NCBI RefSeq assembly: GCF_000003815.2
Contig: NC_049994.1
Span: 12,413,538-12,477,537 of the forward strand
Source of the DNA: Branchiostoma floridae
Lineage: Eukaryota; Chordata; Leptocardii; Amphioxiformes; Branchiostomatidae
Reading direction: 5' to 3'
Length of the DNA: 64,000 nucleotides
Positions 30,501 through 33,930 of this stretch are shown in pieces. The position numbers were made by a program, and so were the translations under genes. The notes under the pieces are model-generated. The model did not search any database and was not told where the DNA came from. It saw only the letters and a program-made list of their open reading frames with translations. Position 1 is the first letter of the stretch, and every line of letters begins with the position of its first letter.

Positions 30501-32474
30501 GGGACAGAAATCTACTTGCTGGGACGAACAAAAGTTTTACCCCGCTCATCCACCCTGTTCTCTCTAAATGGCCATGAGCTTCGAAATATACTGGGCAGAC
30601 CCCTTTTTGATTAATGAGAAAAGAGAGCCTTGTCCTGACATTTATTAATATTTTTTTTTATCTCTACAGCTAATTGGATGCATCATTGGAAAAGGTGGTT
30701 GCAAGATCAATGAAATCAGGTAAGGCAGTTTTTTTACAAGGCTATAGCAACTTGATATAGCAACTTACAGAGTGGTATTGTTGAGCTTTATGTAGAGGAT
30801 TTGTCAATTGTCACAAATCCATGGACAACTCTGTTGGAACTTTGTACAGTTAATGCCTCTCTCCTGACCTTGTGGGTAGGTACAAAAAAAGTTGGATTAG
30901 AGTGAAACATTACTTGTTACCTCAAAAAAGCATATTTATCCTACATTTAGAACTAAATAAGATATTATTGACAGCTAAACAAAATACATTTTCTTGATGC
31001 TAACATTTCATCTGTACAATGCAGGCAATGTTCGGGAGCGACCATAAAGATTGCGGGGATGCAGGAAGGCTCGACGGACCGGCAGGTGACGATCACGGGA
31101 ACGCCCGAGTCCATCAGCATGGCACAGTTTCTTATCAACACCAGGTGGGCCTTCCCAGCATGCACTCACCCCTTCCCATCATGCTAGCCTGTTTCCCATG
31201 ATACATTGCTGATGGTCCTCCATGTTAGGTTTCTACTTCCCGGTGTGTTTCTGTTCTCGCTTTGCCATTGTGTTCCAAAACGGTCTTCTTACCAAAAGGA
31301 TAATCATTTGGATGGGTTGTAGCTGACTTTAGGGCCCTTATTTGGACTTGAAGACATTTCAAAAGCAGTCTTTCGTGTTTATTTTCGAACTTGAAGGTAA
31401 AGTACAACACAAGAGTAGGCATTCAAAATTGCAATACTGTTTATCTAAAACTAGGCCTTAGAGAACCATGTTGTCTGGCAACCATCCAAATGGTCTAACA
31501 TCTCTGAATACAGAAGCAAAGGTAGGTGAAGTCTGTGGTAAAGAAAAAAATGCTTTCCTTTGCCTTTCTTTTTCTTTCAACTCCTCTGGGACATTTTTTT
31601 CTGTATATATATATATATATACTAAGTTATAAACTGCATGGAGTACATGTAATCTGAAGTGATATTATCACACTCCTGTGTGTGTGACAAGGTAAGCTGA
31701 CTTTTACTCACACATACAGCACTCACCCTGTCCCTTTCTTACTCTAATTTTATGTCTTATCGATGAGTCCTTTTCTAACAAAATAACCTCCACGTCTTTT
31801 TAGATTTCCCTGCCTTCTGACTGTCTATAATCTATTCCCCTTTTGTTGTAGCTATGAGTTGATATTGATGATACGTTTATGGCTAACCTTGTAGGCTAGA
31901 CGCTTTACTGATTTATCCTGCTTTGTTGAGTATGACACCGTTCTGATCTGCTCTGATTAGACATCGCAAGAATAACCTCCTCATCATATGGCTACTTTTT
32001 AATCCCATCATTGTGAATGAAAGCATCCCATTACCATGACGACTGTTAGCATCCCTTGTTGCCATGACGACAATTACAATTCTTCCCCCTGTCACACCCC
32101 ATCCTTGTCCATCCTCTAACCCCATGCCTCTAACCCCGTCCCTCCGTTTCCACCATCCTGCCCTCCCCCATGTCTCTTACAGCTTAGAGCTGGCCAAACG
32201 CTTGACCCCCGACCTGACCACGCCCACCACCGCTCCCTCCTCTACGTTGAATCCCACTTCCCTGGGGGTGGGGCAGGGTGGCACGCCCACCCCCCTGGCC
32301 GTCCCCCTGAGCAGTCTGATGTCGTTGAAACCAGTCCCGCTCCTTGAACTCGCACAGGCGGGCTTACTAGATGCGACCAGTAGATCGTCCTACACAGCAA
32401 AAGTGAAAAACGCAACGGGGACGGGGACCTCTGGGGCGAAGAAATCCGATCGCAATAAGTTTGCACCGTACTAG
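3515..32474 (+). CDS. PCBP: Poly(rC)-binding protein (PCBP/hnRNP E), three KH domains, complete
   Basis: This gene encodes an RNA-binding protein that recognises C-rich RNA and single-stranded DNA, acting in splicing, mRNA stability and translation. The coding exons are 3515-3601, 14520-14576, 16131-16247, 17722-17850, 18236-18364, 27564-27653, 28180-28221, 28951-29020, 30259-30344, 30670-30719, 31025-31144 and 32183-32474. All join in frame through GT-AG introns to give 422 residues. KH1 (about residues 17-87) has GKKG, KH2 (about 103-168) has GKGG after [10 protein letters not shown], and KH3 (about 262-325) has GKGG after LIGCII. Family hallmarks between KH2 and KH3 are [21 protein letters not shown] and [11 protein letters not shown]. 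The start is [10 protein letters not shown], the first ATG of the exon that opens after an acceptor at 3455. The last exon gives a long tail ending NKFAPY, resembling vertebrate PCBP4. An alternative last exon lies at 33888-33930. Family assignment is certain; the orthologue is ancestral to several vertebrate paralogues by inference. Confidence 0.95.
5080..5345. repeat. Short-period tandem repeat, TTTCACAGACATTTCC array
   Basis: About eight to nine units of roughly 30-36 bp are built on CAAATTTCACAGACATTTCC followed by a variable ACTACTGTACCCC spacer. Frames through the array encode a repetitive peptide, but this comes from the repeat and has no start, splice or family support. It lies in PCBP intron 1. 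Confidence 0.85.
5578..5770. mobile_element. Foldback MITE with TACTGTAAATGC termini
   Basis: Terminal inverted repeats TACTGTAAATGC / GCATTTACAGTA bound a 193-bp near-palindrome with CGCGAA-type inner motifs. It is flanked by a direct repeat of about 45 bp (5533-5577 and 5771-5816, sharing GAGAAAACCCTATTGGGGCA). Other copies sit at 14016-14226, 14872-15203 (diverged) and 57302-57513, with a fragment at 53678-53750. Confidence 0.85.
5818..6095. mobile_element. Dispersed repeat with CAGGGCTCGAAAT-type termini
   Basis: The element starts near CAGGGCTAGAAATTAC and ends GGTATTTCGAGCCCTG. Inside are repeated CCTGCA motifs. A second copy in opposite orientation is at 62033-62347, sharing the motifs GCAGGT and TGGTGTCTACCTGCA. 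The short inverted termini suggest a non-autonomous DNA transposon, but I could not confirm a target-site duplication. Confidence 0.6.
7946..8325. repeat. Diverged tandem duplication of about 190 bp
   Basis: Two consecutive segments share GCATGAAGAAAGAT, GATATATTTTTATTTTCT, CACAATAT and CACATCAACCTG in the same order (about 7946-8125 and 8128-8325). This is an old direct duplication inside PCBP intron 1, with no coding content. Confidence 0.7.
9445..10250. mobile_element. Non-autonomous hAT-type transposon, 806 bp
   Basis: Terminal inverted repeats TAGGGCTGGGTA...TACCCAGCCCTA enclose an 806-bp element. An exact 8-bp direct duplication GTTACCAG flanks it at 9437-9444 and 10251-10258. An 8-bp duplication with this kind of terminus is characteristic of hAT elements. 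Subterminal GGTCCGG/CCGGACC motifs are dense. There is no transposase frame. A diverged copy in reverse orientation lies at about 57757-58214. Confidence 0.88.
10391..10451. repeat. Near-perfect hairpin, 26-bp stem and 9-nt loop
   Basis: Arm 10391-10416 pairs with 10426-10451 with one mismatch, around the loop GCATGATGG. The pairing can extend a few bases outward through T/A pairs. The stem is GC-rich (contains GAAACCCCACCTTTCA), unlike the surrounding AT-rich intron. It could be a minimal foldback element or a transcribed hairpin; the sequence does not decide. Confidence 0.7.
10906..11084. mobile_element. MITE with CAGTAGAAGCC termini, TA target site
   Basis: Inverted termini of about 23 bp, CAGTAGAAGCCGTTTAATTG at the left and its near complement ending GGCTTCTACTT at the right, bound a 179-bp AT-rich element flanked by TA. 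The TA target suggests Tc1/mariner mobilisation. It is non-coding and lies in PCBP intron 1. Confidence 0.7.
12671..13841. mobile_element. Long-terminal foldback element, 1.17 kb
   Basis: Two arms of about 230 bp (12671-12905 and 13608-13841) are inverted copies of each other. Each arm is itself built from nested palindromes on the unit AGGGGAGATTGGAATTCC. The outer ends read ATATGTCACAGGG and CCCTGTGACATAT. The centre holds a second inverted pair (about 13213-13235 and 13295-13310) and a direct pair with GTCAGACTT (13347 and 13508). Open frames across the right arm on the minus strand are artefacts of the palindromes. Confidence 0.8.
14016..14226. mobile_element. Foldback MITE, TACTGTAAATGC family
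   Basis: The termini TACTGTAAATGC and GCATTTACAGTA enclose a 211-bp near-palindrome homologous to 5578-5770 and 57302-57513. It sits 290 bp upstream of PCBP exon 2. Confidence 0.85.
14872..15203. mobile_element. Diverged copy of the TACTGTAAATGC MITE family
   Basis: It starts TTCTGTAAATTCAATTTGCA and ends GCCATTTACGGTA, with the characteristic TTTGCAG, GCAAACTTAA and AACCACCG segments. It is longer than the other copies (about 332 bp), probably because of internal insertion. It lies in PCBP intron 2. Confidence 0.6.
15641..15980. mobile_element. Non-autonomous element with CAGGTCTGTCTCCAG termini
   Basis: The left end CAGGTCTGTCTCCAG is the near complement of the right end CTGGAGACAGCCCTG, about 340 bp apart. 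The same termini bound a shorter element at 55120-55324. The right-end phrase also occurs near 170-183. It is non-coding. Confidence 0.55.
16410..16625. repeat. Fragment of the TACCTCCATGAAA dispersed repeat family
   Basis: The segments CTACCCACATACCAAATATC and CGATCCATCCA match the inner part of the family seen at full length at 46498-47535. It lies in PCBP intron 3. Confidence 0.5.
18365..20522. other. PCBP intron 5, left part, with a 260-bp tandem duplication
   Basis: Most of this stretch shows nothing recognisable. A direct duplication covers about 19793-20048 and 20064-20311: both copies contain GATGAAAAA, AAACTTGCA, AACATACCACTAA and ACATGTAGAAG in order. A third partial echo follows at 20396-20420. 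No exon with KH or linker similarity is visible. Confidence 0.6.
20527..26890. mobile_element. CACTA/EnSpm-like non-autonomous element, about 6.4 kb
   Basis: The left end CACTGGTGGGCCCGATAATG and the right end, complementary to CACTGGTGGGGCCTATAATG, are inverted copies that continue for about 60 bp through TCGGACAGAA and CCCTCCAAAGACATTC. The trinucleotide TGA abuts both ends, fitting the 3-bp target duplication of CACTA elements. Subterminal AATGTCT motifs are dense on both sides (for example 20650, 20707, 26755, 26797, 26826). A 70-bp direct pair with GAATGTTACAAGAATGTCTT recurs at 21131 and 21479, and a pair of about 160 bp at 22166-22330 and 25096-25247. No transposase-length frame survives, so it is non-autonomous or badly decayed. 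It occupies most of PCBP intron 5. Confidence 0.7.
23789..23860 (+). repeat. tRNA-like SINE head
   Basis: An A-box-like TGGCGACGGTGATAGCG (23792-23808) and a good B box GGTTCGATTCC (23835-23845), flanked by a complementary CCCCG/CGGGT stem, are spaced as in a tRNA gene. The acceptor stem and anticodon arm are not convincing, so a tRNA-derived SINE or decayed tRNA is more likely than a functional gene. Confidence 0.45.
26891..27563. other. PCBP intron 5, right part
   Basis: This is ordinary AT-rich intron sequence up to the acceptor TTGTGTTTTGCAG at 27563. A short frame at 26826-27014 spans the end of the transposon and is not supported as coding. Confidence 0.5.
29031..29240 (+). promoter_or_regulatory. 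Cluster of CCCAGCATGC motifs after PCBP exon 8
   Basis: Exact CCCAGCATGC occurs at 29031-29040, 29072-29081 and 29155-29164, with CAGCATGC at 29233. The same motif, or CCCATCATGC, recurs just after exon 11 (31154-31163, 31175-31184) and just after the alternative stop (33935-33944). The surrounding sequence is C-rich. Each cluster starts within 10 to 30 nt of the end of a PCBP coding exon, so a role in splicing of this gene is possible; a repeat remnant is the alternative. Confidence 0.35.
31602..31622. repeat. TA microsatellite
   Basis: A short (TA)n run in PCBP intron 11. A similar (TA)n run occurs at about 37668-37688 in the intergenic region. Confidence 0.8.
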
Positions 32475-33887: not shown

Positions 33888-33930
33888 GCTGAGAGAAGAG
33901 GTCAGCGGAATGGGAGGGCTAGTCCTGTGA
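33888..33930 (+). CDS. PCBP: Alternative terminal coding exon of PCBP (PCBP1/2/3-type C-terminus)
   Basis: An acceptor TTTTTATAG ends at 33887. Exon 11 of PCBP ends with two bases of an Arg codon, and joining it to this exon completes that Arg and reads LREEVSGMGGLVL before a TGA at 33928-33930. Vertebrate PCBP1/2/3 proteins end with a short tail of the same pattern (RL, two or three residues, E, then a GMG motif), as recalled from the family. Skipping exon 12 (32183-32474) would therefore give a 339-residue isoform in place of the 422-residue one. The exon lies 1.4 kb beyond the exon 12 stop, with AATAAA at 35407 downstream. No transcript evidence is available here. Confidence 0.75.

What the first reader, a model, noticed from the sequence alone, without database searches (positions are those of the whole stretch)
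31025..33930. One PCBP gene with two alternative C-termini, one PCBP4-like and one PCBP1/2/3-like
Exon 11 ends in phase 2. It can join exon 12 (32183-32474), which encodes a 97-residue tail with LKPVP, SYTAK and a final [11 protein letters not shown], resembling the tail of vertebrate PCBP4. It can also join 33888-33930, which encodes LREEVSGMGGLVL, resembling the short tail of PCBP1/2/3. Both have good acceptors, the correct phase and their own downstream polyadenylation signals. If real, the ancestral chordate gene made both tails by alternative last exons, and vertebrate paralogues each kept one. The vertebrate comparison is from memory.
Basis: partly seen in the sequence, partly recalled or inferred. 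Interest (0 to 1): 0.82.

Follow-up and report, generated by a model that had tools for sequence, protein, structure and literature searches.

The report
One PCBP gene, two alternative tails
A single RNA-binding-protein gene, probably from a lancelet, appears able to end its protein in either of two ways, and each ending resembles that of a different vertebrate copy of the gene, a probable case of duplicated genes dividing up the splice forms of one ancestor.

Summary
The window carries a complete 11-exon PCBP core (ATG 3515 to donor 31144; junctions GT-AG and in frame; three KH stretches) and two possible last exons in the same phase. Tail A (32183-32474) gives 97 residues ending [11 protein letters not shown]. 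Against human PCBP4 (recalled, not fetched) it scores 121; 0 of 5,000 shuffles reach that. Tail B (33888-33930) gives (R)LREEVSGMGGLVL. Anchored at the splice site it matches recalled PCBP3 better than any of 96,856 shuffled and 16,564 genomic short tails; against PCBP1, the one tail checked in full in a database, it is unremarkable. Exon 11 and both tail regions match the 513-Mb assembly once each; KH3 elsewhere reaches only 36-48% identity. The acceptor before tail A is exceptionally C-rich and that before tail B C-poor. Mammalian PCBPs activate C-rich acceptors and U2AF65 U-rich ones (PMC5829739), so the protein may influence its own tail choice; that is inference. No transcripts, other lancelets, outgroups or vertebrate genes could be examined: use of tail B and the vertebrate partitioning remain unproven, though likely.

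The parts
3515..3601 (+). coding exon 1: [29 protein letters not shown], start of KH1 (start codon at 3515 is my choice; a second in-frame ATG is at 3590)
   Evidence: in-frame ATGs and GT donor; similarity to a PCBP2-like N-terminal query; included in the PDB hit to PCBP2
14520..14576 (+). exon 2, KH1 (GSIIGKKG loop)
   Evidence: PDB PCBP hits for KH1-KH2
16131..16247 (+). exon 3, KH1 second half
17722..17850 (+). exon 4, KH2 first half
18236..18364 (+). exon 5, KH2 second half
27564..27653 (+). exon 6, linker [12 protein letters not shown]
28180..28221 (+). exon 7, linker [14 protein letters not shown]
28951..29020 (+). exon 8, linker [11 protein letters not shown]
30259..30344 (+). exon 9, linker and start of KH3
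30670..30719 (+). exon 10, KH3 (GCIIGKGG loop)
31025..31144 (+). exon 11, KH3 second half; shared donor for both tails, phase 2
   Evidence: one match in the genome at DNA level
32082..32182 (+). C-rich polypyrimidine tract before tail A (51% C and 7 CCC runs in the 100 bases ending 3 before the exon)
32183..32474 (+). alternative last exon A, PCBP4-like tail LELAK...LKPVPLLEL...SYTAK...[11 protein letters not shown], with stop
33173..33336 (+). poly(A) signals for tail A: ATTAAA 33173, AATAAA 33331
33888..33930 (+). alternative last exon B, PCBP1/2/3-like tail (R)LREEVSGMGGLVL, with stop
34182..35412 (+). poly(A) signals for tail B: ATTAAA 34182, AATAAA 35407

Best explanation
This is the one full PCBP gene found in this (probably lancelet) genome, with two mutually exclusive alternative last exons. 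Splicing from 31144 to 32183, with poly(A) addition near 33331, makes a 422-residue protein with a long PCBP4-like tail. Skipping to 33888, with poly(A) addition near 34182 or 35407, makes a 339-residue protein with a short PCBP1/2/3-like tail. All three KH domains are the same in both, so RNA binding is shared and only the tail (inferred: partners or stability) changes. The most economical history is that the gene before the vertebrate genome duplications already made both tails and that vertebrate copies each kept one. Shown: sequence, frames, splice signals, single matches in the assembly, better-than-chance resemblance to the tails compared. Inferred: that both mRNAs are made, what the tails do, and the partition among vertebrate paralogues. 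Further inference: PCBP bound to the C-rich tract before tail A promotes use of exon A, and low PCBP lets U2AF65 use the C-poor acceptor of exon B.
For: In-frame gene with GT-AG junctions and a shared phase-2 donor; three KH_1 stretches in each isoform; closest PDB chains are PCBP2 and PCBP1. Tail A against recalled PCBP4: score 121, shuffle maximum 77, 0 of 5,000. Tail B: 0 of 96,856 shuffled and 0 of 16,564 genomic tails reach its PCBP3 score; in a PDB search the PCBP1 chain aligns through SSEKGMG, two residues short of its end. Good acceptors and separate poly(A) signals. Single matches in the assembly; six weaker KH3 places elsewhere, three of them in a NOVA-like and an hnRNP K-like gene by my reading, three not identified. 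Acceptor contrast: A has the highest C of the gene's 12 acceptors, 0.51 against 0.08-0.40; 1 of 401 acceptor-like background sites is as C-rich. PCBPs activate C-rich and U2AF65 U-rich acceptors in mammals (PMC5829739, passages).
Against: No transcript evidence. Tail B is 13 residues plus a split codon. Against PCBP1, the one tail confirmed in full, its score is reached by 127 of 96,856 shuffled and 27 of 16,564 genomic tails, and is beaten in the window by one + strand and at least two - strand AGs. PCBP2/3/4 tails are recalled. No relative of tail A or KH3 was found in viral contigs or genome contigs; those are viral and prokaryotic collections, so this says little. For the self-regulation idea: B's low C (0.10) is not unique, exon 6 has 0.08; exons 3 and 7 also have raised C, 0.40 and 0.37; 7 or more CCC runs occur at 62 of 401 sites; exon A is itself C-rich, so the tract may be local composition. 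PCBP3, short-tailed by recall, is reported cytoplasmic like PCBP4 (PMC9701828, passage), so localisation does not simply follow the tail.
Confidence: 0.78

Rival explanations
1. Only tail A is used; 33888 lies in unused sequence downstream and resembles PCBP1/2/3 tails by chance.
For: No transcripts seen; tail B is short; its PCBP1 score is reached by 0.13% of random short tails, about 0.25 expected among 192 in the region.
Against: PCBP3 and PCBP2 tail scores (recalled tails) are reached by 0 and 4 of 96,856 shuffled tails, none reaching all three; strong acceptor, matching phase, RL at the start and a stop at about the right length, own poly(A) signals.
Confidence: 0.1
2. Tail B is a relic: the exon was used in the ancestor but now survives only as rare or unused sequence.
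For: Absence of expression data is compatible; no clear branch point seen by eye before 33888 (sequence).
Against: Frame, splice sites and stop are intact, which a long-unused exon would be unlikely to keep (inference).
Confidence: 0.1
3. The two tails were not both in the common ancestor: vertebrate PCBP4 or the lancelet gained its second tail separately.
For: Outgroups not examined.
Against: Tail A resembles recalled PCBP4 through LKPxP, YTAK and KKxxRxKFxPY and, by eye, in its first residues (SLELAK, CLETAK), which independent gain would not give. Vertebrate exon borders were not checked.
Confidence: 0.12

Closest known systems
Vertebrate PCBP1/2/3 (alpha-CP1, -2, -3; hnRNP E)
   Same: Three KH domains in the same order; short tail after KH3 starting RL and containing GMG (PCBP1 in PDB 1wvn; PCBP2/3 recalled)
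   Different: One gene here also encodes the other tail; mammalian PCBPs come from four dispersed loci (PMC5829739, passage)
Vertebrate PCBP4 (alpha-CP4, MCG10)
   Same: Long tail with LKPxPxLxL, YTAK and a KKxxRxKFxPY end (recalled sequence)
   Different: The linker before KH3 here reads [11 protein letters not shown]...LTKLHQLA, which by recall is PCBP2/3-like, so the gene is not simply PCBP4
hnRNP K with alternative C-terminal ends
   Same: A KH3 protein with more than one end after the last KH (recalled; PDB hnRNP K chains read QYS where the recalled alternative reads QYA)
   Different: Different gene, different tails
HBS1/SKI7 splice forms split among duplicated genes; MITF in fish
   Same: Function-sharing: one gene with alternative forms, some later copies keeping one each (PMC6143672 abstract; PMC5306129 passages, which cites MITF by title)
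   Different: Here the two forms rest on genome sequence only
CDK2 exon 5 and RUNX1 exon 6, PCBP-activated C-rich acceptors
   Same: C-rich polypyrimidine tract before the alternative exon (PMC5829739 passages; PMC9701828 passages)
   Different: Those are other genes' exons; here the target would be the PCBP gene itself, untested

Membership tests
PCBP (alpha-CP / hnRNP E) family | Three KH domains, two near the N-terminus and one near the C-terminus | tested here: met
   KH_1 in 3 stretches in both isoforms
PCBP (alpha-CP / hnRNP E) family | Closest to PCBP rather than hnRNP K, NOVA or IGF2BP | tested here: met
   Best PDB chains PCBP2 2jzx E 4.3e-66 for KH1-KH2 and PCBP2 2p2r E 9.9e-29 for KH3
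PCBP (alpha-CP / hnRNP E) family | Binds C-rich RNA | not testable with these tools
   GxxG loops present in the sequence; no binding assay
PCBP4-type tail | Long tail with LKPxP, YTAK and KFxPY end | tested here: met
   Score 121, 0 of 5,000 shuffles, but against a recalled sequence
PCBP1/2/3-type tail | Short tail RLxxE...GMGxx after KH3 | tested here: met
   0, 4 and 127 of 96,856 shuffled tails reach the PCBP3, PCBP2 and PCBP1 scores; PCBP1 confirmed in PDB, PCBP3 and the end of PCBP2 recalled; on PCBP1 alone the test would be inconclusive
Alternative last exons | Shared donor, two acceptors in compatible phase, each with stop and poly(A) signal | tested here: met
Alternative last exons | Both junctions seen in RNA | not testable with these tools
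   No transcript data held
Function-sharing after gene duplication | Single-copy gene of an unduplicated relative carries both forms | tested here: met
   Exon 11 and both tails match the assembly once; KH3 elsewhere at most 48% identical. A divergent partial KH1-KH2 copy lies at 50302-51092
Function-sharing after gene duplication | Each vertebrate paralogue keeps only one form | not testable with these tools
   No vertebrate genes held; recalled only. A paper used two mouse PCBP3 forms (PMC4937337, passage); how they differ was not seen

The most novel reading that the evidence does not exclude
The gene is a self-reading switch: PCBP protein binds the exceptionally C-rich tract before exon A of its own pre-mRNA and so favours the PCBP4-like tail, while scarcity of PCBP leaves the C-poor, U2AF65-type acceptor of exon B to give the PCBP1/2/3-like tail. 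After the vertebrate genome duplications this regulated choice was frozen into separate genes, so an ancestral feedback between isoforms became a division between paralogues.
Probability: 0.2. Interest if true: 0.72.

Novelty: new member of a known kind. Interest (0 to 1): 0.5.

Why it matters
It gives a concrete, testable pre-duplication state for the PCBP family: the difference between PCBP4 and PCBP1/2/3 tails would predate the gene duplications and have begun as a splicing choice. It would explain why the vertebrate paralogues differ so sharply after KH3 and offers a single gene in which to compare both tails on one KH core.

Tried and rejected
Scans for animal PCBP sequence in viral contigs and genome contigs found no relative; these collections are viral and prokaryotic. 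A PDB search with tail A alone found nothing up to E 10, so its PCBP4 likeness could not be checked against a database. A text search for six printed vertebrate tail peptides found 0 papers. Rfam found no family at gathering threshold in 27000-36000. A plasmid search with the tail B region found nothing. Text searches that might have shown a printed account of this gene or of tail partition showed none by title and start of abstract; some lists were cut (25 of 36, 12 of 99), most listed papers were not opened, and the library lacks most subscription papers; two relevant ones, PMC4417111 and PMC4494069, are not held. The second in-frame AG at 33855 was rejected as the acceptor (score -9.2, 76% of AGs as good or better). 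In one search four of 11 listed acceptor positions (16117, 17734, 18208, 28182) were mis-set by 2 to 28 bases, and three (16128, 17731, 28181); all 12 were redone for base composition at the right places. The table was cut at 60 rows, so its tail rows were not seen until, where tail A's only other hit below E 0.05 is the C-rich tandem array near 51.8 kb, taken as low complexity. The CCCAKSATR clusters were considered as a splicing element; orientation and spacing do not settle it, and they are reported only as noticed.
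Full report
What is there. The window lies at G000:C16:12413538-12477537 of a 513-Mb assembly in 431 contigs. On the + strand a PCBP gene can be built from 11 coding exons, 3515-31144, with GT-AG junctions and one reading frame (that script began at a second ATG at 3590, and the start at 3515 is my choice). The first exon, 3515-3601, lies far upstream of the finding. The protein has three KH_1 stretches. Its KH1-KH2 half is closest to PCBP2 2jzx (E 4.3e-66) and its KH3 to PCBP2 2p2r and PCBP1 1wvn.

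Two ends. Exon 11 ends in phase 2 at a good donor. Exon A, 32183-32474, and exon B, 33888-33930, both follow in frame and give proteins of 422 and 339 residues. Each has its own downstream poly(A) signals. With an approximate recalled matrix the acceptors rank in the top 1.7% (A) and 0.6% (B) of 3,805 + strand AGs.

How good are the resemblances. Tail A against the recalled human PCBP4 tail scores 121; 5,000 shuffles average 36 and reach 77 at most. The match covers LKPxPxLxL, YTAK and KKxxRxKFxPY, and by eye also the first residues, SLELAK and CLETAK. Tail B was tested by joining exon 11 to every AG and scoring the short products end to end. Of 96,856 such tails from 150 dinucleotide shuffles, 0 reach its PCBP3 score, 4 its PCBP2 score, 127 its PCBP1 score, and none all three. 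In 22 stretches (220 kb) of the same chromosome the counts are 0, 1 and 27 of 16,564. With 192 short tails in the 3' region, chance would give about 0.25 as PCBP1-like, but under 0.01 as PCBP2- or PCBP3-like. The weak point is that only the PCBP1 tail was confirmed in full in a database (1wvn) and the PCBP2 tail only as far as RLSSE (2p2r). On PCBP1 alone, other AGs of the window do as well or better. PCBP3, PCBP4 and the end of PCBP2 are from memory, and a search for the printed peptides found none.

Copy number. The exon 11 region, tail A and the tail B region each match the assembly once. The KH3 protein finds 9 places: three at this locus and six elsewhere at 36-48% identity. Of the six, two on C1 lie in one NOVA-like gene and one on C2 in an hnRNP K-like gene, named by my reading of their translations; the other three were not identified. 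So one full PCBP gene was found. A divergent partial copy with KH1 and the first half of KH2 lies at 50302-51092; no KH2 second half or KH3 was found in the rest of the window or the next 20 kb, and there is no second tail A match in the genome.

How it may work. The 100 bases ending 3 bases before exon A are 51% C with 7 CCC runs, the highest of the gene's 12 acceptors; before exon B they are 10% C with none. The other ten range from 8% (exon 6) to 37% and 40% (exons 7 and 3), so A stands out while B is low but not unique. Among 401 acceptor-like sites in the 220-kb background, 1 is as C-rich as A and 5 are as C-poor as B with no CCC run; seven or more CCC runs occur at 62, so the run count alone is not unusual. 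Mammalian PCBPs activate acceptors with C-rich tracts, intrinsically weak, while U2AF65 serves U-rich ones (PMC5829739, passages; also RUNX1 exon 6, PMC9701828, passages). A PCBP gene whose alternative last exons sit behind these two kinds of acceptor suggests self-regulation. That is composition plus analogy, not a shown mechanism; after the recount I lowered its odds slightly, from 0.22 to 0.20. What the tails do is unknown. PCBP3 and PCBP4 are reported cytoplasmic and PCBP1/2 mainly nuclear (PMC9701828, passage), so localisation does not simply follow tail type. Of PCBP1-4 only PCBP4 failed to promote frameshifting in one assay although all four bound the partner protein; the authors suggest size and domain spacing (PMC4937337, passages).

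History. One gene with both tails here and one tail per gene in vertebrates (recalled) is what function-sharing after duplication predicts. That model and other cases are in print: HBS1/SKI7 (PMC6143672, abstract), and the review PMC5306129 (passages), which cites MITF in fish. It is a new member of that kind. The pair may be older than chordates; no outgroup could be examined. Text searches showed no printed account of this gene among the titles and abstract starts listed.

Verdict. Observation confirmed; interpretation partly supported. About 0.78 that both last exons are real and used alternatively, and lower, by judgement about 0.6, for the vertebrate partition as stated.

Noticed in passing
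window 50302-51092 (+): Divergent partial PCBP-like tandem copy: KH1 in two exons (DAGAIIGKEGVNIKSFRD; SGANINITSTAVVERILNISGS), split where the parent gene splits KH1, and the first half of KH2 ([34 protein letters not shown]); no KH2 second half or KH3 in the rest of the window or the next 20 kb.
   Followed up: partly
window 29031, 29072, 29155; 31154, 31175, 31195; 33935, 33954 (+): Motif CCCA[GT][CG]AT[GA] clusters at roughly 20-base spacing or multiples of it, just after the exon 8 donor, the exon 11 donor and the tail B stop. 12 in the window on both strands against 3.8 expected; 4 in 220 kb of background. Genome-wide, close pairs number 137 against 8 for the reversed control, 3 of them in this gene, but many of the rest are copies of a few repeats (100 places listed). 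It recalls vertebrate ZNF143/THAP11 sites (memory) or could be an RNA element.
   Followed up: partly
window 51190-51914: C-rich tandem array of a unit like CCCGCTCCAGCCACTTTA soon after the last exon found of the partial PCBP copy.
   Followed up: no
window 32513-32536 and 32903-32926: 24-base inverted repeat, 92% complementary, within the tail A 3' untranslated region.
   Followed up: no
L028 (G000:C2:33327905-33328078): hnRNP K-like KH3 exon of the same genome; by recall vertebrate hnRNP K also has alternative ends after KH3, so its counterpart here may be worth the same look.
   Followed up: no
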